Source of the DNA: Pontibacter mucosus | GTDB lineage: Bacteria > Bacteroidota > Bacteroidia > Cytophagales > Hymenobacteraceae | NCBI RefSeq assembly: GCF_003054055.1 | Contig: NZ_QBKI01000004.1 | Coordinates: 1 to 64,000, forward strand | DNA: 64,000 bases | Direction of reading: 5' to 3' | Shown: piece after piece, positions 444 through 18,781 of the stretch | Layout: each line of letters begins with the position of its first letter | Position numbering within the stretch: the first letter of the stretch is position 1 | The notes under the pieces: generated by a model | What the model was told of the DNA's origin: nothing | What the model saw: only the letters and a program-made list of their open reading frames with translations | Database searches by the model: none | Position numbers and translations under genes: made by a program

Positions 444-518
444 GCATCCGTGGAAACTTTTTTTTCAGCGGGCGGACTCTCGTCCTTTCCCCTGCCCCAC
501 TCCTGCTGAACGGGGAGG

Positions 519-718: not shown

Positions 719-752
719 GTGTTTTCTTTTCTTCAAGTACAGCTTTTATACT

Positions 753-2036: not shown

Positions 2037-2044
2037 TTAAGTGT

Positions 2045-2395: not shown

Positions 2396-2867
2396 GCTTT
2401 TGTTCCTCTGTCGCTTTTTTTGCCCGGCAATCGCCGCACACACCATATAAGTTCAGGGAGTGGTGCAAGATATGAAAATTTAGCAGTTCGCCCACCATAC
2501 TTTGAATCTGATGAACCCGCGGATCACAGAACTCCACCACCTTGTGGCATTCGGTGCAGATAACGTGGTCGTGCTGGCGGTAGCCATAAGATTTCTCGTA
2601 CTGCGCCAGGTTACGCCCAAACTGATGCTTGCTTACCAGATCGTTCTCTACCAGCAGGTCCAGGGTGTTGTATACGGTGGCCCGGCTCACGCGGTAGTTC
2701 TTGTTCTTCATGCTAATATAAAGCGATTCCACATCAAAGTGGCCGTCGCTGGAATAGATCTCCTCCAGGATGGCATAGCGCTCAGGTGTTTTACGTAAAC
2801 CTTTGCTCTCCAAGTATGCCGTGAAGATCTTTTTTACTTCCTCGAACTTCTTTTTATCCAATGCCAT
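2367..2867 (-). CDS. Fur/PerR-family metal-dependent repressor
   Basis: A 166-residue transcription regulator. An N-terminal winged helix contains the [14 protein letters not shown] recognition region, and a C-terminal metal/dimer domain contains two CxxC pairs (CTEC near residue 104 and CGDC near 143) that would hold a structural zinc. His-rich segments such as RQHDHVIC are typical regulatory-metal ligands. Sequence alone does not separate Fur (iron) from PerR (peroxide), so no symbol is given. It lies 27 bp after rel and overlaps the STAS gene start, so it is clearly co-transcribed. The acidic tail after the second CxxC is the least conserved part. Confidence 0.9.
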
Positions 2868-2894
2868 TTTCTTTTTCTAAAGTATAAAACCTCT

Positions 2895-5087: not shown

Positions 5088-5169
5088 GTTTTACAACTAT
5101 GACACGCATGTAGCCCGCTCTGCCGGCCCATACCTATAAGTATAAATAAGCTGGCTGTGTTATAAGTTT

Positions 5170-5199
5170 CAAATATAAGTGATTAAAACATGCTGCCAA
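5170..5199 (-). promoter_or_regulatory. Promoter of the rel-fur-STAS-purA operon
   Basis: On the minus strand TTG (5197-5199), a 19-base spacer, then TATATTTG (5170-5177), an exact TAnnTTTG -7 element. It sits about 80 bp upstream of the rel start codon. Confidence 0.75.
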
Positions 5200-5273
5200 T
5201 ACAACCTGCCTCCGAAAACTGAGGCCAAAATATGAGCCGGTGCAAAAATATTTAAGAAATTTAGAGCAGTATA

Positions 5274-5303
5274 TTGCATTTAAGAAATCGTTGCTTACCT
5301 TTG
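5274..5303 (+). promoter_or_regulatory. Promoter of tRNA-Leu
   Basis: TTG (5274-5276), 19 bases, then TACCTTTG (5296-5303). This is the same geometry and -7 sequence as the array at 188-548, which supports reading that array as stable-RNA promoters. The mature tRNA begins about 27 bp after the -7 element. Confidence 0.8.
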
Positions 5304-5330
5304 CAACACTAAAACAAAGAGCACACGCAA

Positions 5331-5412
5331 GCGGATGTGGCGAAATTGGTAGACGCACTAGACTTAGGATCTAGCGCTGCGAGGCATGGGGGTTCGAGTC
5401 CCTCCATCCGCA
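5331..5412 (+). tRNA. tRNA-Leu (anticodon UAG)
   Basis: An 82-nt class II tRNA. The acceptor stem GCGGATG (5331-5337) pairs with CATCCGC (5405-5411) and A5412 is the discriminator. The anticodon loop CTTAGGA carries TAG at 5365-5367, the T-arm has GGTTCGAGTCC, and the D-loop has the usual GGTAGACGC. The long variable arm fits leucine. CCA is not encoded. The gene stands alone with its own promoter and terminator. Confidence 0.97.
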
Positions 5413-5428
5413 CAAACAAAACACGACG

Positions 5429-5462
5429 AACCCTCAACATTCCCTGTTGGGGGTTTGTTTTT
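5429..5462 (+). terminator. Terminator after tRNA-Leu
   Basis: An 11-bp stem (5429-5439 with 5445-5455) with a 5-base loop, followed by a T-rich tail. It lies 17 bp past the tRNA and ends transcription before tig. Confidence 0.85.
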
Positions 5463-5498
5463 AGTAGGTTATTCAGAAATCTTAAAAATTTATAAGCC

Positions 5499-6821
5499 TT
5501 GAATATTACATTAAACCAAACCGACAGCACCAATGCGCAACTGAAGGTGGTACTGGAAGAGGCGGACTACGCACCAAAGGTAGACCAGCAGGTAAAAGAA
5601 TATAGCAAAAAAGCCCAGATCAAAGGTTTCAGACCTGGCAAAGTGCCTGCAGGGCTTGTAAAGAAAATGTACGGCAAGAGCATCCTGGTGGAGCAGATCA
5701 ACAAGACGCTTCAGGAGGAGATCTCTAAGTACATCCGTGAAAACGACGTGAAACTGCTGGGCGAGCCGCTTCCGGTGGCAGAGCAGCCAGAAATAGACTG
5801 GGACAACCAGAAAACATTCGAGTTTACGTATGAGGTAGGCTTGCTGCCAGACTTCAACCTTCCGCTGGACAAAAGCGTAGAGGGCTACAAAGTTGAGCTG
5901 GACCAGAAAACAGTAGACGAGGCATACGAGAACCTGAAGCGTCAGTTCGGCAAAACAACTAACCCGGAAACAGTAGAGCAAGGCGACTTTGTGTCTGGCG
6001 AGCTGAAGCAGCTGGAAGGTGATTTCCAGTCTAAAACGCTTATCCCGACGAGCCGTATCGTGGATGGCGCAGACAAGTTTGTTGGCGCTAAAGTGGATGA
6101 CGTTATCCGTTTCGACATCCGCAAGACGTTTGGCGACGACAACGCTGCCCTGGCACACGTAACCGGCCTGAGCAAAGAGGTGGTAGCTGACCTGAACGGT
6201 GAGTTTGAGTTTATCGTGGAGAAGATCAACCGCACAGAGCCTGCCGAACTGAACGAAGAACTTTTCGACAAGCTTTTCGGTAAAGACGAAGTAAAAACAG
6301 AGGAAGAGTTTGACGCCAAGATCCGTGAGACGATCCTGGAGAACTACGAGCGTGAGGCTGACAACCTGCTGTACCGCAACATCATCGACACCCTTGTTGA
6401 CAACGTAGAGGCTGAAATCCCGACTGAGTTCTTCAAGCGCTGGATACAGGTAACGAACGACGGCAAGCTGACTGCCGAGCAAATCGAGGAGAACTTCGAC
6501 AAGTATGTTCGTGAGCTGAAGTGGTCCATGATCAAGAACAAGGTAGTTGAGGAGAACGACCTGAAGGTAACGAACGAGGAAGTTGTTGAGGCTACCAAAG
6601 AGAAAATGCTGGCCCAGTTTAACATGCCAGAGGTGCCTGAGGAGCTGATGGAGAGCATGAATAACTATGCCCAGCAGTATCTGCAGCAGGACAACGGCCG
6701 TAACTATATTAATGAGTACGAGCAATTGCTGGCCGAGAAGGTGCTCGCAAAACTTAAGGAGAAGATGACTGTTGTAGAGAAGACCATTACATCAGAGGAC
6801 TTCCGAAATATGTCGCTCTAA
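5499..6821 (+). CDS. tig: Trigger factor (ribosome-associated chaperone)
   Basis: Binds nascent chains at the ribosome exit tunnel and helps folding. At 440 residues the protein shows the N-terminal ribosome-binding domain with the region KAQIKGFRPGKVPAGLVKKM near residues 40-60 (the family loop is GFRxGKxP), a degenerate middle PPIase-like domain, and a helical C-terminal domain. The frame begins with TTG at 5499; no ATG occurs early enough to keep the conserved N-terminus, so a TTG start is the best reading. No Shine-Dalgarno site is visible. It is followed by clpP and clpX, the common bacterial order, but each gene has its own terminator. Confidence 0.95.
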   Translation: MNITLNQTDSTNAQLKVVLEEADYAPKVDQQVKEYSKKAQIKGFRPGKVPAGLVKKMYGKSILVEQINKTLQEEISKYIRENDVKLLGEPLPVAEQPEIDWDNQKTFEFTYEVGLLPDFNLPLDKSVEGYKVELDQKTVDEAYENLKRQFGKTTNPETVEQGDFVSGELKQLEGDFQSKTLIPTSRIVDGADKFVGAKVDDVIRFDIRKTFGDDNAALAHVTGLSKEVVADLNGEFEFIVEKINRTEPAELNEELFDKLFGKDEVKTEEEFDAKIRETILENYEREADNLLYRNIIDTLVDNVEAEIPTEFFKRWIQVTNDGKLTAEQIEENFDKYVRELKWSMIKNKVVEENDLKVTNEEVVEATKEKMLAQFNMPEVPEELMESMNNYAQQYLQQDNGRNYINEYEQLLAEKVLAKLKEKMTVVEKTITSEDFRNMSL

Positions 6822-6848
6822 ACGAGGCGCGCACATATAACTTTTAAT

Positions 6849-6885
6849 AAAAAAGTCCTTCGGAATTAGAAGGACTTTTTTATTT
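6849..6885 (+). terminator. Terminator of tig
   Basis: A perfect 12-bp stem (AAAAAGTCCTTC with its complement) around a 7-base loop, followed by T-rich sequence, 28 bp after the tig stop. Confidence 0.9.
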
Positions 6886-6911
6886 TTGATAAAACCGTAA
6901 ACCTAAACAAA

Positions 6912-7610
6912 ATGATGTTTAACAAAGACGAGTTCCGCAAATTTGCTGTAAAAGGCCAGGGCATGAGCAGCCTGGGCGTAGACCAATATATTAATCATGT
7001 AGAAGGCAGAGCCATGCACACCATCGAAAGCATGACTCGCTCTGTAATTGAGGAACGCCCCACTAACTTCCGTGAAATCGACGTATTCTCGCGCCTGATC
7101 ATGGACCGTATTATTTTCCTGGGCACGCAGGTGGATGACTTCATTGCCAATATCATCACGGCGCAGCTGCTGTTCCTGGAGTCGGCGGATGCCAAGAAAG
7201 ATATCCTGCTCTATATCAACAGCCCGGGTGGTTCCGTGTATGCCGGCCTCGGTATTTACGACACCATGCAGTACGTAAGCCCTGATGTGGCTACTATCTG
7301 CACCGGTCTGGCTGCTTCGATGGGTGCTGTGTTGCTGGCCGGAGGTGCCAAGAACAAGCGCTCTGCCCTGCCGCATGCCCGCATCATGATTCACCAGCCA
7401 ATGGGCGGTGCACAGGGCCAGGCATCGGATATTGAGATCACTGCCCGCGAAATCCTGAAGCTGAAGAAAGAGTTGTACGAGATACTGGCAGAGCACTCAG
7501 GCAAAACATACCAGGAGATCTATGACAACTCAGACCGCGATTACTGGATGCGCGCCGAGGAAGCCAAAGAGTATGGCCTGATAGACGAGGTATTGATCCG
7601 CAAGGCGTAA
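6912..7610 (+). CDS. clpP: ATP-dependent Clp protease proteolytic subunit
   Basis: The serine peptidase that forms the double-ring chamber of ClpXP/ClpAP and degrades unfolded proteins fed by the ATPase. The catalytic triad is visible: Ser136 in LAASMGA, His161 in RIMIHQP and Asp210 in DRDYW. At 232 residues it is slightly long for the family because of about 30 extra N-terminal residues, as is usual in Bacteroidota; this part may be processed. Two consecutive ATG codons (6912 and 6915) could both start the gene. clpX follows after 366 bp with its own promoter region. Confidence 0.97.
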
Positions 7611-7647
7611 AAAGCCAAGCGCACAAAGTATAAATAATACAATATAG

Positions 7648-7685
7648 AGGCCTGCTCAGATATTCTGTGCAGGCCTTTTATTTTG
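7648..7685 (+). terminator. Terminator of clpP
   Basis: An 8-bp stem AGGCCTGC (7648-7655) with GCAGGCCT (7669-7676) followed by TTTTATTTT. Confidence 0.85.
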
Positions 7686-7976
7686 TACCGCACACACACG
7701 GTGCTACTTCCTCAGAAGTTGCTTTTTGTAATTATTTTCAGGCGCCGCGAAAAACTTATCCACATACCCCTGTGTATATCATACAAACACAACTTGCTGG
7801 CTTAAAGCATATTACAATAAAATAGGAAAATATTTATTTTAAGATAAACACCCTCCTTTTAAATGTATCAGGAGATTTGGATTTAAATTTTTCTGCCTGC
7901 ATAAGTGTTCAATTTTGTACCTTTGCTTTACGCATTTGTAAAAGCTGCGTAAACTACTCTGGATCAATCGTTTCTT
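7686..7976 (+). promoter_or_regulatory. clpP-clpX intergenic region: clpX promoter and DnaA-box pair
   Basis: No gene is present. A perfect DnaA box TTATCCACA lies at 7756-7764, and a convergent one-mismatch box follows 5 bp later (TGTGTATAT, 7770-7778). An AT-rich stretch covers about 7800-7870. A -7 element TACCTTTG at 7918-7925 lies 51 bp before clpX; its -33 element is poor (CTG at 7893-7895, spacer 22). Confidence 0.55.
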
Positions 7977-9200
7977 ATGGCAGAAATTACTTGCTCATTT
8001 TGCGGCAAAAACAAGAAGGACGTTTCGGTGATGATCTCCGGCATCAACGCGCATATCTGCGACCGTTGTATCGGACAGGCACAGCAGATTTTGAATGAGG
8101 AGAACAAGATTCGCGCAAGCAGTCGTACTCCGAAATTCAACCTGATGAAGCCGAAAGAAATGAAGGCTTACCTTGACCAATTTGTGGTAGGACAGGACGA
8201 GGCGAAGAAGGTGATGTCGGTGGCGGTGTATAACCACTACAAGCGCCTGATGCAGCAACCTGCCGACGACGATGTGGTGATCGAGAAGTCGAACATCATC
8301 ATGGTGGGCGAAACCGGTACAGGCAAAACTTACCTGGCGCGCATGATGGCCGGTATCCTGCAGGTGCCTTTCTGTATTGCTGACGCTACTGTGCTTACGG
8401 AGGCTGGTTATGTGGGCGAAGACGTGGAAAGTATACTTACCCGCCTGCTACAGGCCGCTGACTACAACGTAGAGGCAGCCGAGCGCGGCATCGTGTACAT
8501 CGACGAAATTGACAAGATTGCCCGTAAGAGCGATAACCCCTCCATCACCCGCGACGTGAGCGGCGAAGGTGTGCAGCAGGCCCTACTGAAACTATTAGAG
8601 GGTACCACCGTGAACGTGCCGCCGCAAGGAGGCCGTAAGCACCCGGAGCAGAAAATGATCACCGTGAACACGGAAAACATCCTGTTCATCTGCGGTGGCG
8701 CCTTCGTAGGAATCGACCGTTTGATCAAAAACCGTCTGAACACGCGTCCTATTGGCTTCTCGAAGTCTAAGATGGACGAAGTGGCCGAAAGCGAAAGCTT
8801 CCTGAAGTACCTGACAGCACAGGATTTGAAAAACTTCGGCCTGATTCCGGAGCTGATCGGTCGTCTGCCCGTACTCACGCACCTGAACCCATTGGACAAG
8901 GAAACCCTGCGCCTGATCCTGCTCGAGCCAAAGAACTCTATTGTGAAGCAGTACAAGCGCCTGTTCCAGATGGAAAACATTGAGCTGACGTTTGACGAGC
9001 AGGCCCTGGAGTATATCGTAGAGAAGGCTTCGGAGTATAAACTTGGCGCCCGTGGTCTGCGCTCCATCTGCGAGGGCATCATGACAGACGCCATGTTTGA
9101 GTTGCCGTCGGAGGAAGGAACCAAGGAACTGGTTATCACCGGCGATTATGCCCGTGAGAAATTTGAGAAATCGAGCCTGAAGCAGCTGAAAGTAGCCTAA
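7977..9200 (+). CDS. clpX: ATP-dependent Clp protease ATP-binding subunit
   Basis: AAA+ unfoldase that recognises substrates and threads them into ClpP. An N-terminal zinc-binding domain has four cysteines (Cys6, Cys9, Cys28, Cys31). The Walker A motif GETGTGKT lies at residues 111-118, Walker B is in IVYIDEIDK, and the C-terminal sensor-2 region contains GARGLRSI. The length of 407 residues is normal. The AAGTATACTT palindrome found across the window lies inside the gene at 8429-8438. Codon use resembles that of its neighbours. Confidence 0.97.
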
Positions 9201-9207
9201 GGTAATT

Positions 9208-9263
9208 AAAGTATAAAAAAGAGGGCTGGTCAAAAATTTGACCAGCCCTCTTTTTTATACTTT
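9208..9263. terminator. Bidirectional terminator with a perfect 27-bp stem
   Basis: Arms at 9208-9234 and 9237-9263 are perfectly complementary around a 2-base loop, and the outermost pair of bases extends this to 28 bp. The outer arm ends are AAAGTATA and TATACTTT, the dispersed motif of this genome. A-runs and T-runs on both sides let it serve clpX (plus) and the small minus-strand gene. Confidence 0.9.
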
Positions 9264-9278
9264 ATTCTTTGCCCGTGC

Positions 9279-9398
9279 TTATACTTCCAGGTAATCATCC
9301 TCCCAATCTTCTTCCAAAGCCCTGTCAGAGGAGGCGCGGATGAGCAGCACGGATAGCATTAAACCAGTCAGCCCTAAGGCGATTAACAGCGATTTCAT
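9279..9398 (-). CDS. Small single-pass membrane peptide (39 aa), function unknown
   Basis: An ATG at 9398 opens a 39-residue frame closed by TAA at 9279. Residues 1-20 (MKSLLIALGLTGLMLSVLLI) form a hydrophobic transmembrane or signal-like segment, followed by a short basic/polar step and a strongly acidic tail (EEDWEDDYLEV). I do not recognise a family. It lies 88 bp downstream of lpxB on the same strand and ends 16 bp before the shared terminator, as a real last gene of the unit would. The charge pattern argues for a real peptide, but its size leaves this open. Confidence 0.5.
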   Translation of the reverse strand: MKSLLIALGLTGLMLSVLLIRASSDRALEEDWEDDYLEV

Positions 9399-9486
9399 AG
9401 TTTCGGGGTTTAGGTGTACAGCGATTTCTCCTGCCAGCTTTTAGCAGTTTTTTCTATACGGTTACACGCTGCGGGTAGGTTTAGCT

Positions 9487-10608
9487 TTATACTTGCTCAG
9501 CCTTCAGATAGCCCACCATCAGCTCTGCGGCACGTTCTGCGGTTCTAAAATCGCCAATCTTTTTACGCACCAGCGCGTATCCCTCCTGCTGCTTCTGCAT
9601 AAAGTGCTTGTCAAACAGCACCCGCTTTAGCTCTGCCACAATCTGCTTGGCGGTAAACTCCTCCTGGATCAGCTCGGTTACCACGGGCTTATCCGCAATC
9701 AAATTCACCAGCGAGATGTAAGGCACCTTTATCACCATCTTGCCGATAGTATAGGAAATAGCGCTTGTCTTGTAGCACACCACCTGCGGCACGCCGAACA
9801 AGGCTGTCTCCAAGGTGGCCGTGCCCGACGTAACCAGCGCCGCCTTGGCATGCGAGAGCAGGTCGTAAGTCTGATCGTAGACGATCTTGATATTGGGGTC
9901 TTTGTTATACTGCTCGTAGTAGTCTTTGGAGAAATTGCTCACACCGGCCACCACAAACTGAAAATCGCGGAAGTTGGGCAACACGCTCAGCATCACGTGC
10001 AGCATGTTCTCTATCTCTTGGCGGCGGCTGCCCGGAAGTATGGCAATGATGGGCTTGTTGTTGTAAAGCTTGTTTTTAGTGCGGAAATCAGCGCAGGCTA
10101 CGTGGTCGGTTACCGAGTCGTTCACGGGGTTGCCCACATAATCCACCTTGTAGTCGAAGCGGCCGTAGAAATCCTCCTCAAAGGGCATGATGACGAACAT
10201 GCGGTCCACCACTTTCTTGATGCCGTGCACGCGCCCCTGGTTCCAGGCCCAGATTTTGGGGGAGATGTAGTAGAATACCTTTATTCCCTGTTTTTTGGCA
10301 AAACGGGCAATGCGCATGTTAAAGCCAGCATAATCCACCAGGATAACCACATCCGGCTGGTAGCGCCGGATATCTTGCTTTGCCTCTTTCAGGAAACCCA
10401 GGATCTTACGCAGGCTCCTGAGCACCTCGGCAAATCCCATGAAGGCCATTTCCTGGTAGTGGCGCACCAGCTCCATACCGGCTGCCTGCATCATATCACC
10501 ACCCCAGCCCCTGATCTGCGCCTCCGGGTCTTGCTTGCGGAGTTGTTTGATCAGGTTAGACGCGTGCAGGTCGCCGGAGCGCTCGCCGGCTATGATATAA
10601 TACTTCAT
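9487..10608 (-). CDS. lpxB: Lipid-A-disaccharide synthase
   Basis: Joins UDP-2,3-diacylglucosamine and lipid X into the lipid A disaccharide at the inner membrane. The 373-residue protein opens with YYIIAGERSGDLHASNL, the family N-terminal signature, and contains the GWGGDMMQAAG, SPKIWAWNQGR and ILPGSRRQEI segments characteristic of LpxB. The terminal part (ATLETALFGVPQVVCYKTS) is the donor-binding region of GT-B glycosyltransferases. It begins 68 bp after queD and may be transcribed from the upstream btuF-btuC-queD unit. Confidence 0.96.
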   Translation of the reverse strand: MKYYIIAGERSGDLHASNLIKQLRKQDPEAQIRGWGGDMMQAAGMELVRHYQEMAFMGFAEVLRSLRKILGFLKEAKQDIRRYQPDVVILVDYAGFNMRIARFAKKQGIKVFYYISPKIWAWNQGRVHGIKKVVDRMFVIMPFEEDFYGRFDYKVDYVGNPVNDSVTDHVACADFRTKNKLYNNKPIIAILPGSRRQEIENMLHVMLSVLPNFRDFQFVVAGVSNFSKDYYEQYNKDPNIKIVYDQTYDLLSHAKAALVTSGTATLETALFGVPQVVCYKTSAISYTIGKMVIKVPYISLVNLIADKPVVTELIQEEFTAKQIVAELKRVLFDKHFMQKQQEGYALVRKKIGDFRTAERAAELMVGYLKAEQV

Positions 10609-10676
10609 GGGGTAAAGGGTCTTTTGGAGATCGTAAAATAAGGATAGCTGCGGAAAAGTATAGGCCGCTCACTAAA

Positions 10677-11099
10677 TTATTCTCCAAAGTACTCTACGTA
10701 GTTGCGTGGGGTTTCGTAAAGCTTCAGGCTGTGCAGCGTGGCGTTGTTTTTAGAGATTTCCTTCACGCGCGGCTCCAGAATTTTCCAGAACTCCACTACC
10801 AGGTTCTCAGTGCTGGCCAGCTTGTCCTCCATAAAGGCCACATCCAGGTTCAGGTTTTTGTGGTCCACCTTCTCGATGATGTGGGTGCGGATAAGGGTGC
10901 TGAGCTTCTTCAGGTCGATCACAAAGCCAGTGTCCGGGTCGGGCTTGCCCTTTACCGTCACGATCAGCTCGTAGTTGTGCCCATGCCAGTTGGTGTTGGC
11001 GCATGGCCCGAAAACCTCCTTGTTCTTAGCCAACGACCAGTTCGGGTTGAATAACTTGTGAGCTGCGTTAAAGTGCTCTAACCTGCTAACGTAAATCAT
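10677..11099 (-). CDS. queD: 6-carboxytetrahydropterin synthase (QueD/PTPS family)
   Basis: Converts dihydroneopterin triphosphate to 6-carboxytetrahydropterin, an early step of queuosine/7-deazaguanine synthesis. Zinc ligands are visible as His14 and the HGH pair His39/His41, with the catalytic Cys33 placed as in the C-x5-HGH motif. The 140-residue length is normal. The start codon directly follows the permease stop (no gap), so the two are translationally adjacent. No other queuosine gene is present in the window. Related PTPS-family enzymes differ in product, so the exact product is inferred. Confidence 0.9.
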   Translation of the reverse strand: MIYVSRLEHFNAAHKLFNPNWSLAKNKEVFGPCANTNWHGHNYELIVTVKGKPDPDTGFVIDLKKLSTLIRTHIIEKVDHKNLNLDVAFMEDKLASTENLVVEFWKILEPRVKEISKNNATLHSLKLYETPRNYVEYFGE

Positions 11100-12110
11100 T
11101 TATTCTTTAAAATTGTAATTCTTTTTGAACAGCAAATATACAAAGAAAGGAACACCAAAGAACGAAGTAATAATTCCGATAGGCAGCCCGGCAGGCGGAT
11201 AAATTATGCGCGAGAGCAAATCGCAGAGCAGCATGAACAAGCCGCCGATAAAAGCGCACAGCAGCAGGTTGCCCCTGCCCGTTGCGCCCAGCAGCCCGCG
11301 CGTGACGTGCGGAATTATCAGCCCAACGAACCCAATCGGCCCGGAAGTAGCCACGGCAAAGCCCGTCACCACTGACACTGTGCCCAGTATCACCCAGCGC
11401 GTTTGCGCCACTTGGATGCCCAAGGCCTGCGCCCTTTCCTCGCCCAGCAAAAGTATATTCAATTGTTTCTGGTAAAAGGCAAACAGCAGCAAGGCTATAC
11501 TTAACGCCGCCGCCGGGTAGGGCACCATCTCCCAACTGGCCCGCTCAAAGCTCCCCATCGACCAAAACACCACCGACCGCAGCTTGCCCTCCGAGTCGGA
11601 AAGAAAGGTGAACAGCCCCACCATGGCCGTAACCAGCGAGCTAAGGGCAATGCCCGCCAACAGCAGCTGCGCCGGAATGATTTGCCGTTTGCGGTAGCCC
11701 AGTATCACCACCACCAGCGTTACTAAGAAGGCACCGGCCAGCGCAAACACTGGCGGCAAGTATAAACCGGCCACCGTCATCGGCACAAATCCAAAGAACA
11801 CGACCACAGCCCCCAACGAAGCGCCCGAGGCTGTGCCCAGCAAGTAGGGGTCGGCCAGGCCGTTATTCACCATCGCCTGCATCAGGTACCCGCAAAAGGC
11901 CAGCGAGGCCCCTACTACCAGAGCGAGCAGCAGCCGCGGCAGGCGCAAATGAAGTATGGCAAAGTGCGTGGTATCGTCGGGGTTGTAGTGGAAGAGGGCG
12001 CTAAAGATGGTAGCTGCGTCGGTGTCAAAAGAGCCGACCTGCAGCCCCAGCAGCATGACCACCAAAATCAGCAATAGGGCAAGTATAAAGTATAAACCCC
12101 GCCGCATCAT
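11100..12110 (-). CDS. FecCD/BtuC-family ABC importer permease
   Basis: A 336-residue inner-membrane permease with about ten hydrophobic segments, of the family importing vitamin B12, heme or iron siderophores. The SLAFCGYLMQAMVNNGLADP segment and the GPIGFVGLIIPHVTR loop (the ATPase-coupling region) are diagnostic of FecCD permeases. It overlaps the upstream solute-binding gene by 4 bp (ATGA). No ATP-binding subunit is encoded nearby, so the importer must share an ATPase from elsewhere. The substrate cannot be fixed from sequence; cobalamin is the most likely guess. Confidence 0.9.
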   Translation of the reverse strand: MMRRGLYFILALLLILVVMLLGLQVGSFDTDAATIFSALFHYNPDDTTHFAILHLRLPRLLLALVVGASLAFCGYLMQAMVNNGLADPYLLGTASGASLGAVVVFFGFVPMTVAGLYLPPVFALAGAFLVTLVVVILGYRKRQIIPAQLLLAGIALSSLVTAMVGLFTFLSDSEGKLRSVVFWSMGSFERASWEMVPYPAAALSIALLLFAFYQKQLNILLLGEERAQALGIQVAQTRWVILGTVSVVTGFAVATSGPIGFVGLIIPHVTRGLLGATGRGNLLLCAFIGGLFMLLCDLLSRIIYPPAGLPIGIITSFFGVPFFVYLLFKKNYNFKE

Positions 12111-13012
12111 GGATATAGGAAGCCCTCCAGCTCCCGCAGCGACTCCACCACCCGCGGGCTGGGCCGCGACATCAGGTTATCGTCTGGTTTATAGAGGCGG
12201 TTATGTTGATAGGCTTTGATGCGGCGCAGCTCCGGGTACAGACTGAAGAACCTTTCCTCCAGCTCCTCCTTGGTGCCACCTAGCAGCACATCCGGGTTGA
12301 GCTTCAGCACGTACTCCCGCGTGAGCGCCGGGTAAGGCTGTTCAAAAACTTCCTGCACGGCATTCTCCGCACCCAGGATGCGCAGCTTATCAGTGAAGAT
12401 GGTGTTTTGCCCGTACACATAAATTGGGTCGCTCCAGGTAATGGCCAGCACTCTTTGCGGTTCATCTTTCTGGTGACGCGCCTTTATACTTGCCACCTCC
12501 TGCCGCAGCGAGTCCGTCAGCTGCCGCGACTGTTGCTCCCGGCCCATGATGCGGCCAATGTCCTCTATCCCCGTAAAGATGTCTTCTACCGTTCTATACT
12601 TTTGATAGTATACCGGCACGCCCAGTTGCTGCAGGCGCTCAGCCACCTCCAGCGGGGTAATGCCCTCCACTGTAAAAATCAGGTCCGGCTTCAGGACCAG
12701 CACCTGCTCGTAATCCACGGGGTAGTTGCTCACCAGCGGTTTCCGGTATACCGCTTCCGGGTAATCGTCGGTGGGCGTGCGGGCGATGATGGTGCTGGTG
12801 TCAAGCACGGCGTAGAGCATCTCGGTCATCGAGGAGGCAAAGGCGAACACGCGCTCGGGCTTTTTTTGAAGCGTCAGCTCACGGCCCAGGTCATCGGTCA
12901 GCACCAGCGCCTCTTGCGGCTGCCTCTCCGGCTGGCTGCACGATAACAGCAGCAGGCAAAGTATAGTATGAAGTATAAATCTGGCTCGTCTCAACGTATA
13001 GATGCCTGGCAC
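12107..13012 (-). CDS. ABC-importer substrate-binding lipoprotein, BtuF-like
   Basis: A 301-residue periplasmic binding protein. The N-terminus has a hydrophobic segment ending in a lipobox-like LLLLSC, so it is probably lipid-anchored. The mature part begins with a TDDLGRELTL segment and shows the PxRVFAFASSMTEMLYAV and PDLIFTVEGITP regions seen in BtuF/FepB-type class III binding proteins. It is transcribed with the FecCD permease (4-bp overlap) and is the first gene of the unit. The start is not certain: a Met at residue 1 precedes an Arg-rich stretch that could itself be part of the signal peptide. Cobalamin or an iron chelate is the expected ligand. Confidence 0.88.
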   Translation of the reverse strand: MPGIYTLRRARFILHTILCLLLLSCSQPERQPQEALVLTDDLGRELTLQKKPERVFAFASSMTEMLYAVLDTSTIIARTPTDDYPEAVYRKPLVSNYPVDYEQVLVLKPDLIFTVEGITPLEVAERLQQLGVPVYYQKYRTVEDIFTGIEDIGRIMGREQQSRQLTDSLRQEVASIKARHQKDEPQRVLAITWSDPIYVYGQNTIFTDKLRILGAENAVQEVFEQPYPALTREYVLKLNPDVLLGGTKEELEERFFSLYPELRRIKAYQHNRLYKPDDNLMSRPSPRVVESLRELEGFLYP

Positions 13013-13079
13013 GGGGCAGGCGGCTCGGTTTATTTTCGTAAATTTAACGCAATTTTAGATACAGGCTTAACAAAGACAT

Positions 13080-14045
13080 ATGATAGTAGTAACAGGCGCC
13101 GCCGGTTTCATTGCCAGCTGCCTCGTAGGCAGACTGAACCAGGACAACTTCAACGACATCGTGGTGGTGGACAACTTCTCCGTCGCCAAAAAGGAAGATA
13201 ACCTGAAGGGCAAGAAGATAAAGGAGTACGTAGACCGGGAGGACTTTTTTGAGTGGCTCGACGAGCATTACGAGGACGTGGAGTTCATCTTCCACCTGGG
13301 CGCTCGCACCGACACCACCGAGTTTAACAAGGATGTGTTCGACCTGCTGAACCTGAACTACTCCAAGCAGATGTGGAACGCCTGCGCCGAGTACCAGATT
13401 CCACTGGTTTATGCCTCGTCGGCGGCTACGTACGGCTCCGGCACGCTGGGCTACGACGATAACGAAGAAATCATCCCGCTCCTGAAGCCGCTGAATCCCT
13501 ACGGCGAGTCGAAAAACGACTTTGATATCTGGGCGCTGCAGCAAACTGCCAAGCCGTTCTTCTGGGCCGGCCTCAAATTCTTCAACGTATATGGCCCTAA
13601 CGAATACCACAAAGGCAAGATGGCTTCGGTTATTTTCCACGCTTATCACCAGATAAAAGAGCGCGGCAGTATGAAGCTGTTCCGTTCCCACAATCCCGAG
13701 TATGCCGACGGCGAGCAGATGCGCGACTTTGTGTATGTAAAAGATGTAGTAGACGTGTGTATGTTCCTGATGCACCACCGCAAGAACTCCGGCATCTACA
13801 ACCTCGGATCCGGTAAGGCCCGCACTTTTATGGCGCTTGCCCTGAATACGTTTGAGGCCATGGGCGTAGAGGCCAACATCGAGTTTATGGACACCCCCGA
13901 GAACCTGCGCGACAACTACCAGTACTTCACCGAGGCTAACATGCAAAAGCTGCGCTCCATCGGCTACGACAAGCCTTTTTATACCTTGGAGGAAGGCGTG
14001 AAAGATTACGTGCAGAACTACCTGATACCGGGGAAGTATTACTAG
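13080..14045 (+). CDS. hldD: ADP-L-glycero-D-manno-heptose 6-epimerase
   Basis: An extended short-chain dehydrogenase that epimerises ADP-heptose for lipopolysaccharide core synthesis. The NAD(P)-binding motif TGAAGFIAS is at residues 5-13, a catalytic YGESK motif lies near residue 140, and the region FFNVYGPNEYHKG matches the HldD family. Its length of 321 residues is typical. It is divergent from the btuF gene with only 67 bp between them. Its stop codon TAG is directly followed by a copy of a dispersed repeat, and then by a terminator. Confidence 0.93.
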   Translation: MIVVTGAAGFIASCLVGRLNQDNFNDIVVVDNFSVAKKEDNLKGKKIKEYVDREDFFEWLDEHYEDVEFIFHLGARTDTTEFNKDVFDLLNLNYSKQMWNACAEYQIPLVYASSAATYGSGTLGYDDNEEIIPLLKPLNPYGESKNDFDIWALQQTAKPFFWAGLKFFNVYGPNEYHKGKMASVIFHAYHQIKERGSMKLFRSHNPEYADGEQMRDFVYVKDVVDVCMFLMHHRKNSGIYNLGSGKARTFMALALNTFEAMGVEANIEFMDTPENLRDNYQYFTEANMQKLRSIGYDKPFYTLEEGVKDYVQNYLIPGKYY

Positions 14046-14087
14046 ACCGGTGATTTAAGGGGATTATCCTGATTGCTATGATTTTTA
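14046..14087 (+). repeat. Copy A of a stop-codon-linked dispersed repeat
   Basis: Begins at the base after the hldD stop codon with ACCGGTGATT and continues with GGATT, CTGATT and GATT blocks shared with copies at 14637, 15292 (minus) and 40908 (minus). Sequence between the blocks is degenerate. Confidence 0.7.
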
Positions 14088-14124
14088 AGGTCAAGTATGG
14101 CTTGAAGCTATACTTGACCTTTTG
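14087..14124 (+). terminator. Terminator of hldD, stem built on the AAGTAT motif
   Basis: About 16 paired bases with one wobble: AAGGTCAAGTAT... with ...ATACTTGACCTT around a TGA loop, followed by a T run. The stem centre is the dispersed AAGTAT/ATACTT motif in inverted pairing. Confidence 0.8.
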
Positions 14125-14178
14125 ATTTGATGCTGTATCTTGGAGCACTTTATACTTCAATAAACCAGATTTATACTT

Positions 14179-14637
14179 ATGAAGCACCTGTTAGCCCTTC
14201 TCATACTTTGCTGCCTTGGCTTTAGTGCCCAGGCACAGTCATCAAACCCCAGCTATAACAAAGCCCTTGCCGACTCTTTGGGCGCTGACGCGTATGGCAT
14301 GAAGCAGTACGTGCTAGTTATACTTAAAACCGGCACCAACACCACCACCGACAAAGAGAAGCTGAACGCATACTTCCGTGGGCACATGGAAAATATTGGC
14401 CGTTTGGCTAAGGAAGGAAAACTGGTGGTAGCCGGCCCGCTGGGCAAAAACGATAAGAACTACCGCGGCATTTTTATACTTGACGCCAAGACGGTGGAAG
14501 AAGCACAGAAAATGGTAGAAACGGATCCGGCCGTTAAAGCAAAGGTTTTTGAGGTAGAACTGTACCCCTGGTATGGCTCCGCCGCACTGCCGCTTTACCT
14601 GGAGACGCATAGCAAGATTGAGAAGGAGAAACCATAA
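14179..14637 (+). CDS. Secreted YciI-like domain protein
   Basis: A 152-residue protein with a cleavable signal peptide (residues 1-20, ending AQAQ) and a YciI-like ferredoxin fold (about residues 40-125: YVLVILKTG..., HMENIGRLAKEGKLVVAGPL). YciI proteins in the cytosol have His/Asp active-site pairs; here the family HxxN-like pattern is present in GHMENI. The Sec signal suggests a periplasmic version, whose substrate is unknown. The 3' end is directly followed by repeat copy B, which starts at the stop codon. Confidence 0.8.
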   Translation: MKHLLALLILCCLGFSAQAQSSNPSYNKALADSLGADAYGMKQYVLVILKTGTNTTTDKEKLNAYFRGHMENIGRLAKEGKLVVAGPLGKNDKNYRGIFILDAKTVEEAQKMVETDPAVKAKVFEVELYPWYGSAALPLYLETHSKIEKEKP

Positions 14638-14678
14638 CCAGTGATTAAAGAGGATTTTTCTGATTTACAAGATTCTAC
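14637..14678 (+). repeat. Copy B of the dispersed repeat, left flank of the GxxExxY gene
   Basis: Starts at the last base of the preceding stop codon (TAA) with ACCAGTGATTAAAG, then GGATTTTTCTGATTTAC. It is oriented inwards, toward the GxxExxY gene, opposite to copy C on the other side. Confidence 0.75.
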
Positions 14679-14723
14679 CCGAAGCATAGTTAAACGGAGT
14701 TGGCTGATTTTTGTGCTCCTGTT

Positions 14724-15158
14724 TTAACCTATTGTTTCAAATTTATGCTTGGCATTGTACAGCCTGCGAAATTCAAGGCTTTTTGAACCGAAGTTAATTA
14801 ATAAGCCTATTTCAAGGCCATAGGCCTCAAGGTAATTTATGGCCTGAGCAATATGCAGATCCTCAAGCTTAGCTACAGCTTTGAGCTCAACAGGAATTTT
14901 AGTATCTACCAGAAAGTCAACCCTTCTATTACCAACCTTTTCGCCTTTATAAAGAACAGGTATTTCAAACTCACGATGAATCTTTAAATTGCGTAGCAGC
15001 ATCTCCCTTTCCAGAGCTCTTTGGTAGATTACCTCAGGGAACCCACTTTTCAGGGTAGAATGCACCTCCATGGCAGCACCAATTATCTGAGAGGTTAAAT
15101 CTGCATACTTGTAGTTATAGGAAGGCATTGTTTTTACAGATTGAGAAGACCTACTCAT
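14724..15158 (-). CDS. GxxExxY protein, putative PD-(D/E)XK-fold
   Basis: A 144-residue member of the GxxExxY family, common in Bacteroidota and often present in several copies per genome; its function is not known. The name motif is residues 39-45 (GFPEVIY). A nuclease-like pattern of Asp (VDFLVD) and ELK (PVELKAV) follows and may be the core of a PD-(D/E)XK fold; this is inference. Two Met codons (residues 1 and 11) could be the start. The gene is flanked by inverted copies of a dispersed repeat, and no other gene is included between them, so the whole could be a small cassette. Confidence 0.8.
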   Translation of the reverse strand: MSRSSQSVKTMPSYNYKYADLTSQIIGAAMEVHSTLKSGFPEVIYQRALEREMLLRNLKIHREFEIPVLYKGEKVGNRRVDFLVDTKIPVELKAVAKLEDLHIAQAINYLEAYGLEIGLLINFGSKSLEFRRLYNAKHKFETIG

Positions 15159-15251
15159 AGTTAAACCTTTAGCTCTCCGCTTAACTACAAATTCTATTAT
15201 TAAATTCAGAATCGCATAAAGTATTTTGATAATCTTTTAGAATTACCTTAC

Positions 15252-15292
15252 GTCTAATCATCTTCATCAGAAATATCCCACTAATCACTGGT
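15252..15292 (-). repeat. Copy C of the dispersed repeat, right flank of the GxxExxY gene
   Basis: On the minus strand it begins directly after the TAG stop (15293-15295) of the barrel-protein gene with ACCAGTGATTAG, then GGATATTTCTGATG. It is inverted relative to copy B. Confidence 0.75.
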
Positions 15293-18200
15293 CTAGAAGA
15301 GCACCGACACCTGGGTTCTGCCGGTATGCACGGCCCCTACCCCGTTGGCTTTGCGCCCATCGTAGTTGAGGGAGATATTGAGGCCGTTGCTCAGGCGCTG
15401 CTGTACTATCAAGGACCAGGTCATGTTGTTGCCGGGGCGCAGGGCGTTCAGGATTTCATAGCCTACATAGGAGGTCTCGTCCCCCTCAAAGTCAATGTTC
15501 ACATACTTTACATTGCTGGTTACGGTACGCTTGCCCACCTGGCTCAACTTTGCTTCCAGGCCCAGCTCATGGAACGTACCCTCCTGCTCTACCTCCGATG
15601 CCTGCAGCACATCCTGTTTCAGTGAGAGCTGGTACTTGCTCGTGAAGCGCAGTTTGGTGTTTGGCTGGTAGGCCAGCTCCGGCGACACCTCCCGCGACTG
15701 TATCTTAAAATTCTTGGAGCTCAGGAAGTTCGACTGATTCTCGCGCACATTATAACCCAGGTTCAGCTGCGAGCTCAGCACTTCGGTCAGGTTCAGGCGG
15801 CTTATCAGCAGGTGGCTCAGCACGTTGCGGGTCTCCGTGCCGTTGGTGAGCAGCTGCTTTTGCTCGTTTTGCTGCACGGTATACTCCATGCCATACTTGG
15901 GGCTGCTGCGGTTAAAGTATACCGTGTGGCGCAACTGCTTCACCAGCGAGATAAGGAACTCATCCTCCACATCCTCACTGAAAGGATTGAAGCGCTGCCC
16001 AAGGTCGTTGTCGGTGGTTTTCTTGTTGATGCTGATAAAGCTGAGCATCGAGAAGTTGGAAAGCCTGGCCTTGATACCTGGCTCGTTTCGCCAGCTTCGG
16101 GGCGCGTTGGTCGTGAGGCGGTAGGTAAAAGTGTTGGTGTAGGCGTTCACGTACTCATCGGTGGGCAGGTAGATTTTGATGTAGCGACGCTGATCCACCG
16201 TTTGCGCCTCCAGGTAGTCGTTCAGGTTGTTGGGGTCGCCGCCGTCGCGCAGGTAGTAGGTGCCCAGCCCCGGCAAGGTCTCCTGAAAAATGTAGATGCG
16301 CTTGAGCTGCCGGCCGGTGCCTGTAGCATAGCTGAGTTCTGAGCGGAAGGCCCCGTCCACAAACGTGCCGTTGTAGTCAACTCTGGACTGGATGGTTTCC
16401 TCGTTTTTGCCGTTGCGCACCTGCAGCTTGCGGTAGGTGGCCTGCGCCTCCAGCGTATGGTCCTGCTTTAGCTTCTTCTGAAGTATGGCATTGTACGTCT
16501 GCGCCACCTCCGGGAAACCCATCGTGCCCACCCCGGTTGGGTAGCGGTCGCGGCGCTGTGCATAATCTAGGCGGAACTTCGTCTTGGTGGTATCGCCGCT
16601 TTCCAGGTAAAACAGGTGCTGTTCAAAGTACTGTGCCGAGCCTACCACAGAGTCGGTGTTGAGGGCAGTGAGACGGTTTTTGTCGAAGCTATACGTATAG
16701 CCAGGCGATATTTTACCCAGGTTATATTTCACATCCATACTTCCGCGGTACCACTGCGACTCGCGCTGCCCTTCCTTGCTGTCGAGCAGGAAAAAGCTGT
16801 TCTTAAACTCCAGCTTGCCCAGTTTTTTCAGTACATCCAGATGATGCTGCACCCCGTCGAGCTGCTCCTCGCGGTGGCGCCGGCTGATGCGGTAATTGAA
16901 CAGGTTGGCGGCATCCTGCGCCGCCCCTACTGAGAAGTTGAAGATATGGTCCTCGGCCTTTTTGGTGTTGGTTAAGCTCCAGTCACGGTCAAATTCAATG
17001 GGGCGGTAGCGGTCGATAGGTTCAAAGTATTCGTCGGTATACTCATAGTTGAGCGTGCTGTTAAGTTTATACTTGCCCAGGAAGGCAATAGGCCTATCCT
17101 GCACCACGTAGCCCACGCGCAAGCCTTTGCCATTGTCATCCCCTGAGTCGATGTCGGAAAAGCGGTTAAGGTCATGTTGCGAGGCAGCCCCTTCGGCAAA
17201 GAAACTCACGCCTTTCTGCAACTCATAGCTACCGCCAAACGTGATGAGTTGCTTCTTGCGCGGCGTGGGCAACACCCGCACCGGTGCGTAGCTTCCCTGC
17301 CTTACACCATTTATAGGAGCTACCCAGCGGTAGGCACGGCCATTTACGGCACCATTCACCGCCACATAGTCGCCATTGCCGGAGCCCACATTGGTAAAGC
17401 TGACGCTGTAGTGCGCCGAATCGGGGTGGGTAGAGTATACGTAGATGCGTTCCAGGTTTTGGCCGTTGCTGTAGGCCGTGTCGCGGCGGGCGTACAGGAT
17501 CTGGCCCGGGTCATAGGTCACACTGTCGGCACCCGAGGCGATGGCCTGGTTCAGGCTGTCGCCTATACTTGCCAGCAGGCGCTTTTGCTCGGAGTTCAGG
17601 CTCAGGTTCAGCAGACTGTTGGGGTTGTCGCTCTCGTTGTAGTAGTTACCGTATACTTTCAGCTTGCCCAGGTTCTGGTAGTGGTTCAGGTGGTAGATGC
17701 CCCGGCTGTAGTTCTGGTCCGAGTACTCAAAATCCACCCTAATCCGGGAGTTCTTGGTGATAACGTGCCGCGTGGTGAAGGTGATCTCCGCCTGGTTATA
17801 GTCTATCACATAATCGTAATCGTAGCCCCGCTGCAGCAGCACGCCATCCAGAAACACCCGTTCCGAGTTGGCCAGTACGATAATGAACAGTTCATTATTG
17901 GGGCCGCGCAAACGGTAGGGGCCCATCACGCCTTCCTGCGGTTGTATGGTTTGGGAGGCAAACTTTCCCTTCGATACCGAGGCCGCTACCGTAGTTACCC
18001 CCTGCCGTTCCGGACTTTTGCCCGTAACATAGCTGAAGGCGCCGCCCTGCACGTTCTTGTAAAACTGCATAAAGTAGGATGGTTTGCTCCGGAGAACCAC
18101 ATCGCCGGCGGTTAGCTGCCACAGCCGGTGCTGCAGTGTGATGTATACTTTGTCGAACTCCTGCAACTGCTGCGTATTGCCCTCCGGCTGAAACGGGATG

Positions 18201-18781
18201 TTTTGGTCGGTGATGGCTGCCGTTATACTGATGTCGTCCGTCAGCTTTCCGTCGAGCTGCAGGTTGAGGGCGGAGTTCACGAAAACGTTCTGCGTATTGC
18301 CAAACGACACGCCCCTGGAAATACTGCCCGTCTTGTTCAGCCCCGGCGTGCGAAAGATTTCCTCTTTGGTGCTGATATTCTCCTCGTAGAAAACGCCGCG
18401 CGGCGACCTTGTTTCCAGCTTGGCGATATCGCGTTTGAAGGCAGGCCGGGTCAGGCTCAGGGGCATCACCCTGAAACAGACCAGCACAGAATCAGGCAGC
18501 GGCAGCATGGTGCCCAGCGTATCGATGGCGACGGAGTCCGGGGCCGGAAAACGGGTAAAGGTGATGCTGTTGGAAGTATAATTATACTCGTAGCTGAAGG
18601 CCTCTGGGTTGGTGTGCTGCAGCGTAATGGAACTGGGCATAACCGTGAGGCTATCCAGCTCCTGTGGAAAATCGGCAACGGGCAACCACTTGCAGCGCTG
18701 GTTGCTGAGCGGGACCTGGGCAAGCAATGGCAGGCTCAACAGCCACAGCATCAGCACTATGCCCAGTCCTTTACTGTTCAT
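15293..18781 (-). CDS. Giant outer-membrane beta-barrel protein, unknown function
   Basis: A 1162-residue secreted protein. I chose the start MNSKGLGIVL at 18781 over an upstream Met at 18967, because it gives a clean signal peptide (hydrophobic residues 5-22 ending LLAQ). It overlaps the kinase gene by 11 bp. The N-terminal third (about 140-260: SISRGVSFGNTQNVFVNSALNLQL, TDQNIPFQPEGNTQQLQEFD) resembles the repeats of SprA-type proteins. The rest is alternating beta strands rich in Tyr/Arg/Asn and ends in a terminal Phe, typical of an outer-membrane barrel. At half the size of SprA it is not SprA itself. Function is not assigned. Confidence 0.75.
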   Translation of the reverse strand: MNSKGLGIVLMLWLLSLPLLAQVPLSNQRCKWLPVADFPQELDSLTVMPSSITLQHTNPEAFSYEYNYTSNSITFTRFPAPDSVAIDTLGTMLPLPDSVLVCFRVMPLSLTRPAFKRDIAKLETRSPRGVFYEENISTKEEIFRTPGLNKTGSISRGVSFGNTQNVFVNSALNLQLDGKLTDDISITAAITDQNIPFQPEGNTQQLQEFDKVYITLQHRLWQLTAGDVVLRSKPSYFMQFYKNVQGGAFSYVTGKSPERQGVTTVAASVSKGKFASQTIQPQEGVMGPYRLRGPNNELFIIVLANSERVFLDGVLLQRGYDYDYVIDYNQAEITFTTRHVITKNSRIRVDFEYSDQNYSRGIYHLNHYQNLGKLKVYGNYYNESDNPNSLLNLSLNSEQKRLLASIGDSLNQAIASGADSVTYDPGQILYARRDTAYSNGQNLERIYVYSTHPDSAHYSVSFTNVGSGNGDYVAVNGAVNGRAYRWVAPINGVRQGSYAPVRVLPTPRKKQLITFGGSYELQKGVSFFAEGAASQHDLNRFSDIDSGDDNGKGLRVGYVVQDRPIAFLGKYKLNSTLNYEYTDEYFEPIDRYRPIEFDRDWSLTNTKKAEDHIFNFSVGAAQDAANLFNYRISRRHREEQLDGVQHHLDVLKKLGKLEFKNSFFLLDSKEGQRESQWYRGSMDVKYNLGKISPGYTYSFDKNRLTALNTDSVVGSAQYFEQHLFYLESGDTTKTKFRLDYAQRRDRYPTGVGTMGFPEVAQTYNAILQKKLKQDHTLEAQATYRKLQVRNGKNEETIQSRVDYNGTFVDGAFRSELSYATGTGRQLKRIYIFQETLPGLGTYYLRDGGDPNNLNDYLEAQTVDQRRYIKIYLPTDEYVNAYTNTFTYRLTTNAPRSWRNEPGIKARLSNFSMLSFISINKKTTDNDLGQRFNPFSEDVEDEFLISLVKQLRHTVYFNRSSPKYGMEYTVQQNEQKQLLTNGTETRNVLSHLLISRLNLTEVLSSQLNLGYNVRENQSNFLSSKNFKIQSREVSPELAYQPNTKLRFTSKYQLSLKQDVLQASEVEQEGTFHELGLEAKLSQVGKRTVTSNVKYVNIDFEGDETSYVGYEILNALRPGNNMTWSLIVQQRLSNGLNISLNYDGRKANGVGAVHTGRTQVSVLF

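What the first reader, a model, noticed from the sequence alone, without database searches (positions are those of the whole stretch)
9201..13020. A highly iterated AAGTAT/ATACTT motif runs through the whole window
Seen: the hexamer AAGTAT and its complement, mostly extended as AAGTATA or AAGTATG, recur far beyond chance. In 9201-13020 I count about 16 copies where about two are expected for a random hexamer on both strands. Copies lie in all reading frames, on both strands, in genes and spacers, and the self-complementary form AAGTATACTT occurs at 8429-8438, 24161-24172 and 63019-63028. The density is lower (about 10 in 24,200-34,000) in the respiratory operon. This resembles DNA-uptake sequences (USS/DUS) or cyanobacterial HIP1, or a replication/segregation or restriction-related signal. 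The inference that it has a genome-wide role is mine.
Basis: partly seen in the sequence, partly recalled or inferred. Interest (0 to 1): 0.75.

Follow-up and report, generated by a model that had tools for sequence, protein, structure and literature searches.

The report
Dialect-forming iterated DNA motif in Pontibacter
The genome of this Pontibacter bacterium carries thousands of copies of a short DNA word, related species carry differently spelled versions of it, and the pattern looks like a self-recognition tag for DNA taken up from the surroundings, a kind of tag best known from two other bacterial families.

Summary
The genome is a Pontibacter (Bacteroidota). The real unit is the non-palindromic (A)AAGTATAAA: 4,337 copies, 2171 forward and 2166 reverse, against 32 for the reversed control. 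Coding copies exceed synonymous shuffles 23-fold.

The new finding is dialects: one Pontibacter clade carries AGGTATAG, another AACTATAG, some genomes two forms, a few none; TATA is shared. Old sites convert in place. Four of 16 sampled stretches are poor in copies; the three typed look accessory.

This is the anatomy of DNA-uptake sequences (DUS/USS). HIP1 fits badly (asymmetric; two methyltransferase families do not track it). Chi/KOPS fits badly (60:40 strand bias; same-composition words 57:43). Type IV pili, the known DUS machinery, were not found, so uptake would need another machine. One lineage with broken comEC, dprA and ComEA-like genes has the weakest enrichment of eight AAG genomes compared, but an intact lineage is almost as sparse and another broken one shows no decay.

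Uptake is inferred: no receptor was found and no experiment was possible.

The parts
1..64000 (.). AAGTAT motif field: 81 forward and 83 reverse copies, 105 of them AAGTATA
9201..13020 (.).
8429..8438 (.). Head-to-head overlapping pair AAGTATACTT, inside clpX (7977-9200)
24162..24171 (.). Head-to-head overlapping pair AAGTATACTT
63019..63028 (.). Head-to-head overlapping pair AAGTATACTT
12081..12094 (+). Two AAGTATA copies head to tail at 12081 and 12088 (7-base spacing; same-orientation neighbours at this spacing occur 24 times in 464 kb)
9209..9215 (+). AAGTATA copy; other + copies in the segment start at 10656, 11451, 11758, 12081, 12088, 12959 and 12971, AAGTATG at 10036 and 11952
35637..39082 (.). 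Longest stretch of the window without AAGTATA or AAGTATG (3446 bp), in and next to the respiratory operon gene 34762-37851

Best explanation
The motif most likely works as a DNA-uptake (self-recognition) sequence. A surface or periplasmic DNA receptor of Pontibacter would prefer fragments that carry (A)AAGTATAAA. Taken-up DNA would pass through ComEC and recombine by DprA/RecA, so alleles with a good motif would be copied into genomes more often than alleles without one and would accumulate wherever they are tolerated. When the receptor's specificity drifts, the favoured spelling changes and old sites convert one by one, which gives the dialects (AAGTATAAA, AGGTATAG, AACTATAG and perhaps a GGTATR and a TATATA form). 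Shown here: copy number, symmetry, coding-independent enrichment, dialects, in-place switching, retention at orthologous sites, poverty in some accessory-type regions, presence of comEC/dprA/ComEA-like genes, no convincing type IV pilus ATPase. Inferred: uptake itself, the receptor, and the recombination drive.
For: (1) 4,337 AAGTATAAA copies vs 32 reversed controls; orientation balanced, and over 50 genomes of the genus 33,321 forward vs 33,339 reverse. (2) Genes in all frames; about 25x in both coding and noncoding DNA over a motif-masked background; densest between convergent genes (9.5/kb), tandem 7.4/kb, divergent 4.2/kb. (3) Dialects: of 50 genomes 20 AAG, 16 AGG or AAC, 3 both, 8 weak, 3 none, by thresholds of mine. 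On a 39-row tree of one respiratory protein AGG is one clade (10 rows, support 100) and AAC plus a mixed genome is one clade (5 rows, 100); 6 changes in all. (4) In-place switching: AGG to AAG at 16.5% of 339 aligned sites vs 4.8% for GC-matched words; AAC to AAG at 3.4% of 436 vs 0.1% GC-matched, 0.45% all words. (5) Orthologous copies kept 20 of 26 vs 54% of matched words (90% identity) and 19 of 31 vs 30% (81% identity). (6) 4 of 16 sampled 20-kb stretches of G000 hold only 0.35-0.95 AAGTATA/kb against 1.9-3.9 in the other 12; three of the four were typed: metal/RND efflux, polysaccharide and glycan-utilisation genes. (7) No stop in the matched domain of comEC and dprA in 48 of 50 genomes; ComEA-like HHH gene open in 49 of 50. 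G043 has lost all three while 26 of 30 other frames at these loci are clean. It has the lowest ratio to the reversed control of the 20 AAG genomes (18.7, next 27.7), the lowest enrichment of 8 AAG genomes modelled (10.4x vs 16-71x) and 233 AAGTATAAA/Mb vs 413-914 in its sister clade (8 genomes).
Against: No uptake experiment and no receptor. No type IV pilus/T2SS ATPase in 50 genomes beyond borderline partial hits of at most 26 bits (up to 31 candidates per genome were scored), whereas the ComP receptor of DUS is a pilin. DUF5689, linked to transformation in Riemerella, is found in 22 of 50 genomes, not in this one, and does not track the motif. Motif-free genomes (G033, G050, G051) keep open comEC, dprA and HHH genes. 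G029 has a low density (261/Mb) with open genes. G017, rich in its dialect, has a shorter comEC frame (561 aa against 702-736 in the other unbroken ones), not examined. The excess of one-mismatch copies in G043 is not unusual (ratio 1.66; 0.93-1.86 in 7 others), and its small excess retention (0.65 vs 0.59 background) and few private sites (7 of 45) rest on small numbers. G009 has broken comEC and dprA yet an undiminished motif, which needs the loss to be recent or an assembly error. In one search the pooled species pairs are not independent and single words with 40 or more copies switch up to 52%. Against distant same-dialect relatives the retention excess fades (L028 6 of 18 vs 24%; mixed L039 3 of 18 vs 18%). 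Only one gene was used for the trees.
Confidence: 0.55

Rival explanations
1. A HIP1-like motif, created or kept by a DNA methyltransferase and an associated repair bias, with dialects following changes of methyltransferase specificity.
For: Very dense (one AAGTATA per 412 bp), and alternate HIPs that replace HIP1 together with a cognate methyltransferase are described (PMC4390886, abstract and part 1 of 8).
Against: The three main motifs are not palindromes. N6/N4 methyltransferases PF01555 are absent from 19 of 50 genomes, including motif-rich G013, G031, G034, G035, G036, G041 and G049. PF07669 hits occur in 47 of 50, but full-length enzymes are scattered and motif-rich genomes such as G003, G006, G034, G038 and G044 show only weak partial hits. 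One-mismatch neighbours of AAGTATA are not depleted as a motif-making repair would predict: 18 of 21 are at or above expectation, the lowest 0.74x. Other methyltransferase families (PF02384, PF02086, PF00145) were not tested.
Confidence: 0.13
2. Binding site of an unknown abundant DNA-binding protein (nucleoid, segregation or recombination factor) under selection in its own right, unrelated to DNA uptake.
For: Genome-wide, both strands, conserved at orthologous sites; spacing is clustered and copies are dense between genes.
Against: Strand bias is 60:40, hardly above 57:43 for words of the same composition, so it is not Chi- or KOPS-like. Direct selection on thousands of sites scattered over frames, with whole-genome dialect changes, is hard to imagine without a drive (inference). 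Some accessory-type regions are poor in it.
Confidence: 0.22
3. Composition or codon-usage artefact: a frequent lysine-tyrosine or other codon pair inflates the word.
For: Part of the copies are in frame as AAG TAT (107 of 558 coding AAGTATA).
Against: Coding copies are 8.7x (7-mer) and 23x (9-mer) above synonymous shuffles, use all frames and both strands, and spacers are denser than genes. Relatives with similar G+C lack it.
Confidence: 0.02
4. Relics of short mobile elements or repeat families that carry the motif.
For: Copies cluster at short spacing.
Against: Flanks beyond one base before and two bases after AAGTATA are near background over 1,126 copies; copies sit inside genes in all frames and convert in place to other dialects.
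Confidence: 0.02

Closest known systems
DNA uptake sequences (DUS) and their dialects, Neisseriaceae
   Same: Short non-palindromic word in many copies; dialects around a conserved core (CTG there, TATA here), distributed along the species tree; overlapping dyad pairs occur (PMC3630211, passages).
   Different: Phylum; no convincing type IV pilus ATPase here, so a ComP-type pilin receptor is unlikely; uptake preference untested; about 830 nine-mers per Mb and about 2,400 seven-mers per Mb in 464 kb.
Uptake signal sequences (USS), Pasteurellaceae
   Same: Asymmetric word starting AAGT (AAGTGCGGT, recalled), both orientations, genes and spacers (recalled).
   Different: Different word after AAGT; no flanking T-tracts here (the USS tracts are recalled); the USS receptor is predicted to be a minor pilin (PMC12616744, title and abstract start in a listing).
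HIP1 and alternate HIPs, cyanobacteria
   Same: Dense motif, replaced by other motifs in some lineages (PMC4390886, abstract and part 1 of 8).
   Different: HIPs are palindromes with cognate methyltransferases; the three main motifs here are asymmetric and two methyltransferase families tested do not track them.
Transformation system of Riemerella (Bacteroidota)
   Same: ComEC, DprA and an HHH-domain protein are needed there (PMC8459023, abstract and passages); homologues are conserved in Pontibacter; its machinery is described as unlike the known ones.
   Different: No uptake motif is named in the passages seen, only a test of preference for own DNA in R. columbina (PMC7965970, passages); the DUF5689 protein was not found in this genome.

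Membership tests
DUS/USS uptake sequence | Asymmetric word of about 9-12 bases, hundreds to thousands of copies, both orientations | tested here: met
   AAGTATAAA 2171 forward, 2166 reverse, control 21/11; logo
DUS/USS uptake sequence | Dialects with a conserved core following phylogeny | tested here: met
   AAG, AGG and AAC forms, TATA shared; 39-row tree, 6 changes
DUS/USS uptake sequence | Present in core genome, poor in acquired DNA | tested here: met
   12 of 16 sampled 20-kb stretches have 1.9-3.9 AAGTATA/kb; of the 4 poor ones (0.35-0.95/kb) three were typed and hold accessory-type genes, one was not typed. That they are acquired is inferred from gene type and G+C
DUS/USS uptake sequence | Transformation genes present, and motif decays when they are lost | tested here: inconclusive
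   comEC, dprA and HHH genes conserved; G043 lost all three and has the lowest enrichment, but G029 is nearly as low with open genes and G009 shows no decay
DUS/USS uptake sequence | Uptake by type IV pilus/pseudopilus with a pilin receptor | tested here: not met
   PF00437 ATPase: only borderline partial hits (best 25.9 bits, cut-off 24.9) in 50 genomes; pilins themselves were not searched
DUS/USS uptake sequence | Motif raises uptake or transformation in experiment | not testable with these tools
   needs bench work
HIP1/alternate HIP | Palindromic motif | tested here: not met
   AAGTATAAA, AGGTATAG and AACTATAG are asymmetric; the palindrome AAGTATACTT is below expectation at order 6. The possible TATATA form of G052 is palindromic
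HIP1/alternate HIP | Cognate methyltransferase present with the motif | tested here: inconclusive
   PF01555 in 31 of 50 and PF07669 in 47 of 50 do not track the motif; other families not tested
Chi / KOPS / AIMS | Strong skew to one replication strand | tested here: not met
   59.7% on the strand that GC skew marks as leading, on 400 kb; same-composition words 57% pooled, 40-77% singly over 67 words

The most novel reading that the evidence does not exclude
Pontibacter has an independently evolved, type IV pilus-free, sequence-specific DNA-uptake system with at least three dialects (perhaps five) within one genus, to judge by the searches made the first uptake-sequence system in Bacteroidota. 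Species change dialect by converting many sites in place, so the genus would show dialect evolution in progress (G038, G040 and G056 carry two forms at once).
Probability: 0.5. Interest if true: 0.9.

Novelty: new variant of a known kind. Interest (0 to 1): 0.8.

Why it matters
Uptake sequences are the clearest case of bacteria choosing their own DNA, yet they are known mainly from two families that both use type IV pili (the latter from a passage of PMC7965970). A dialect-forming motif in a distant phylum without that machinery would suggest that such systems arise independently, would offer a genus with several dialects, mixed genomes and losses for testing whether drive or selection builds them, and would point to an unknown DNA receptor in Bacteroidota. 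It is directly testable in cultured species. The listings of the searches showed no title or abstract start that reports it; the library holds open-access papers only, and I saw listings, not full texts, apart from the four papers named in this report.

Tried and rejected
Maximum-order Markov test of the hexamer: weak signal (1.39x), not used as a criterion because sub-words are inflated. Palindrome as the unit: rejected. Codon artefact and repeat-element relics: rejected. Strand signal: rejected. Type IV pilus ATPase: not found. DUF5689 as receptor: not in this genome and not tracking. Gene neighbourhood of comEC in 10 genomes: no candidate receptor stood out. Methyltransferases PF01555 and PF07669: not tracking. 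Vsr-like repair from depleted neighbours: not seen. Decay signature in G043 by one-mismatch copies: not distinctive. Coding/noncoding split in G043: unusable, the codon-based gene caller found only 51% coding there, although open frames of 100 aa or more cover 82.5%. Private-site counts: too few. In the ortholog survey, 4 of 25 tested frames of G043 were broken, two of them parts of comEC and the HHH gene. G009's general frame integrity was not tested. Samples of 23-40 kb do not settle dialects in weak genomes; G051's GGTAGAG excess is partly a local tandem array. Rows dropped: alignments count only positions aligned in the species compared; spacer classes use gaps of 15-600 bp; a 5.1-kb contig (L181, 0.19 AAGTATA/kb, G+C 29%) was left out of the 16 stretches.
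Full report
What was checked. The window is G000:C4:1-64000 of a 5.23 Mb genome in 23 contigs. The nearest named relative found by an alternative-complex-III-type respiratory protein (window 34762-37851) is Pontibacter chinhatensis, 96% identical.

The unit. In 464 kb (C1:1-400000 plus the window) AAGTATA has 1,126 copies against 66 expected by an order-2 model, AAGTATAAA 414 against 5.3, AAAGTATAAA 201 against 1.7. Around 1,126 copies of AAGTATA the only marked further preferences are A before (47%), then A (60%) or G (22%) with almost no T (2%), then A (45%); beyond that the flanks are near background. AAGTATG is a lesser variant (340 copies; 7x over a motif-masked background).

Genome-wide and symmetric. 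AAGTATAAA: 2,171 forward and 2,166 reverse in this genome against 21 and 11 for the reversed word. Over 50 genomes of the genus the sums are 33,321 and 33,339. On 400 kb, 59.7% of AAGTATA copies lie on the strand that GC skew marks as leading, but words of the same composition show 57% pooled.

Not a coding effect. Copies occur in all frames and both orientations of genes (the forward frame that would hold a stop is empty for AAGTATAAA); 30 synonymous shuffles give 6.4 +- 2.0 coding copies of AAGTATAAA where 146 are found. Spacers hold 5.8 AAGTATA/kb and genes 1.5/kb, densest between convergent genes (9.5/kb), then tandem (7.4/kb), then divergent (4.2/kb). Relative to their own motif-masked background, genes and spacers are equally enriched (25x and 26x). 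Spacing is clustered, not even. Genes were called by a simple script of mine.

Dialects. In 80 loci around the same respiratory gene, many Pontibacter loci have AAGTATA among their top four 7-mers, one group has AGGTATA/GGTATAG, another AACTATA/ACTATAG, at similar densities; loci outside Pontibacter show none of these among their top four. The logos share TATA followed by a purine and differ just before it. On a 39-row protein tree AGG (10 rows, support 100) is a clade and AAC (4 rows, support 86) forms a clade of 5 with mixed L039 (support 100); 15 rows are AAG (L039 and the window counted there), 10 are none (3 of them outgroups); 6 changes suffice. Combining whole-genome counts of AAGTATAAA and ARSTATAG, 20 of 50 genomes are AAG, 16 AGG or AAC, 3 both, 8 weak, 3 none (thresholds mine). 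Two further forms are possible: TATATA in G052 (360 vs 92 in 100 kb) and a GGTATR form in G054 and L037.

Turnover. Window copies aligned to same-dialect species are kept more often than AT-matched words: L025 20 of 26 (54% matched), L026 14 of 26 (25%), L090 10 of 25 (29%), L066 19 of 31 (30%), L056 13 of 26 (23%), L027 12 of 26 (27%), L028 6 of 18 (24%). The excess is absent in mixed L039 (3 of 18, 18%). In other dialects few are kept: L031 0 of 17, L033 3 of 17, L046 0 of 20, L041 2 of 20; in motif-poor L043 3 of 21. Old sites turn into the new dialect: AGG sites align to AAG at 16.5% of 339 positions (GC-matched words 4.8%), AAC sites to AAG at 3.4% of 436 (0.1%; all words 0.45%). These pool 16 species pairs that are not independent, and single words with 40 or more copies reach up to 52%.

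Poor regions. Of 16 sampled 20-kb stretches of G000, 12 hold 1.9-3.9 AAGTATA/kb and 4 hold 0.35-0.95/kb. Ten proteins of three poor stretches were typed: a heavy-metal ATPase and RND efflux region, a low-GC polysaccharide region, and a TonB receptor/glycosyl hydrolase region; the fourth (L167) was not typed.

Candidate machinery. comEC is present in 50 of 50 genomes, with a stop inside the matched domain only in G009 and G043 (G017's frame is short, 561 aa); dprA is broken in the same two; a ComEA-like HHH protein of 304-346 aa is open in 49 and broken in G043 (my count of listed rows). No convincing type IV pilus ATPase was found in any. Riemerella, another Bacteroidota, transforms with ComEC, DprA, an HHH protein and partners of unknown function (PMC8459023, abstract and passages), and R. 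columbina is reported to prefer its own DNA (PMC7965970, passages). The Riemerella-type DUF5689 family has members in 22 of 50 genomes, not in G000, without relation to the motif.

A natural experiment. G043 is the sister row of the clade that holds G000 (41 rows, 30 of the 50 genomes and 11 named loci). Its comEC (1 frame change, 2 stops), HHH gene (4 and 4) and dprA (2 and 3) are broken, while 26 of 30 other frames compared at these three loci are clean; the four others are 156-255 aa long. Its open reading frames are otherwise of normal length, so assembly error is unlikely. It has 233 AAGTATAAA/Mb against 413-914 in the 8 genomes of the sister clade, the lowest ratio to the reversed control among 20 AAG genomes (18.7; next 27.7) and the lowest enrichment of AAGTATAA in eight AAG genomes modelled (10.4x vs 16-71x). 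Its excess retention of shared sites is the smallest of six (0.65 vs 0.59 background; others +0.12 to +0.18) and it has the fewest private AAGTATA sites (7 of 45; others 8 to 16). These numbers are small, G029 (261/Mb) is almost as sparse with open genes, and the one-mismatch test shows nothing special. G009 (AGG-type) has broken comEC and dprA, the latter 92% identical to the open copy of G016, and no loss of motif, as expected only if the loss is recent; assembly error was not excluded there.

Judgement. The pattern matches uptake sequences in copy number, asymmetry, balance, frames, spacers, poverty in accessory-type DNA and dialects. It fails the pilus-machinery criterion and lacks the decisive experiment, so it is filed as working like a DUS, not as a proven member. 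HIP-like methylation is less likely but not closed, since only two methyltransferase families were tested.

Noticed in passing
L153, L154, L241-L243 (genome G052): TATATA is about 4x over-represented and dispersed (360 vs 92 in 100 kb), possibly a further, palindromic dialect.
   Followed up: partly
L252, L253 (genome G054) and L037: GGTATGG/GGGTATA/GGTATAA words are enriched, possibly another dialect.
   Followed up: partly
L081, L068, L072: Other words are enriched in relatives: ACCTAGG (L081, Solirubrum), GGGCCCC (L068) and CTAGCCC (L072), both Hymenobacter.
   Followed up: no
genome G023 (same order, other family): 13 copies of AAGTATACTT against 1 of the reversed control in 2.6 Mb, above the other non-Pontibacter genomes relative to control.
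   Followed up: no
window 1-64000: CTCGAG (2 vs 13.5 expected) and GGGCCC (4 vs 17.4) are avoided, as restriction sites often are.
   Followed up: no
G043: loci L163, L164, L185, L235: comEC, dprA and a ComEA-like HHH gene are all broken in one Pontibacter genome, which suggests they act in one pathway in this genus.
   Followed up: yes
L151 about 11050-11080 and 11500-11525: GGTAGAG repeats at 8-bp spacing in genome G051, small tandem arrays.
   Followed up: no
C1:282000 of G000: Cumulative GC skew turns here, a possible replication origin.
   Followed up: no
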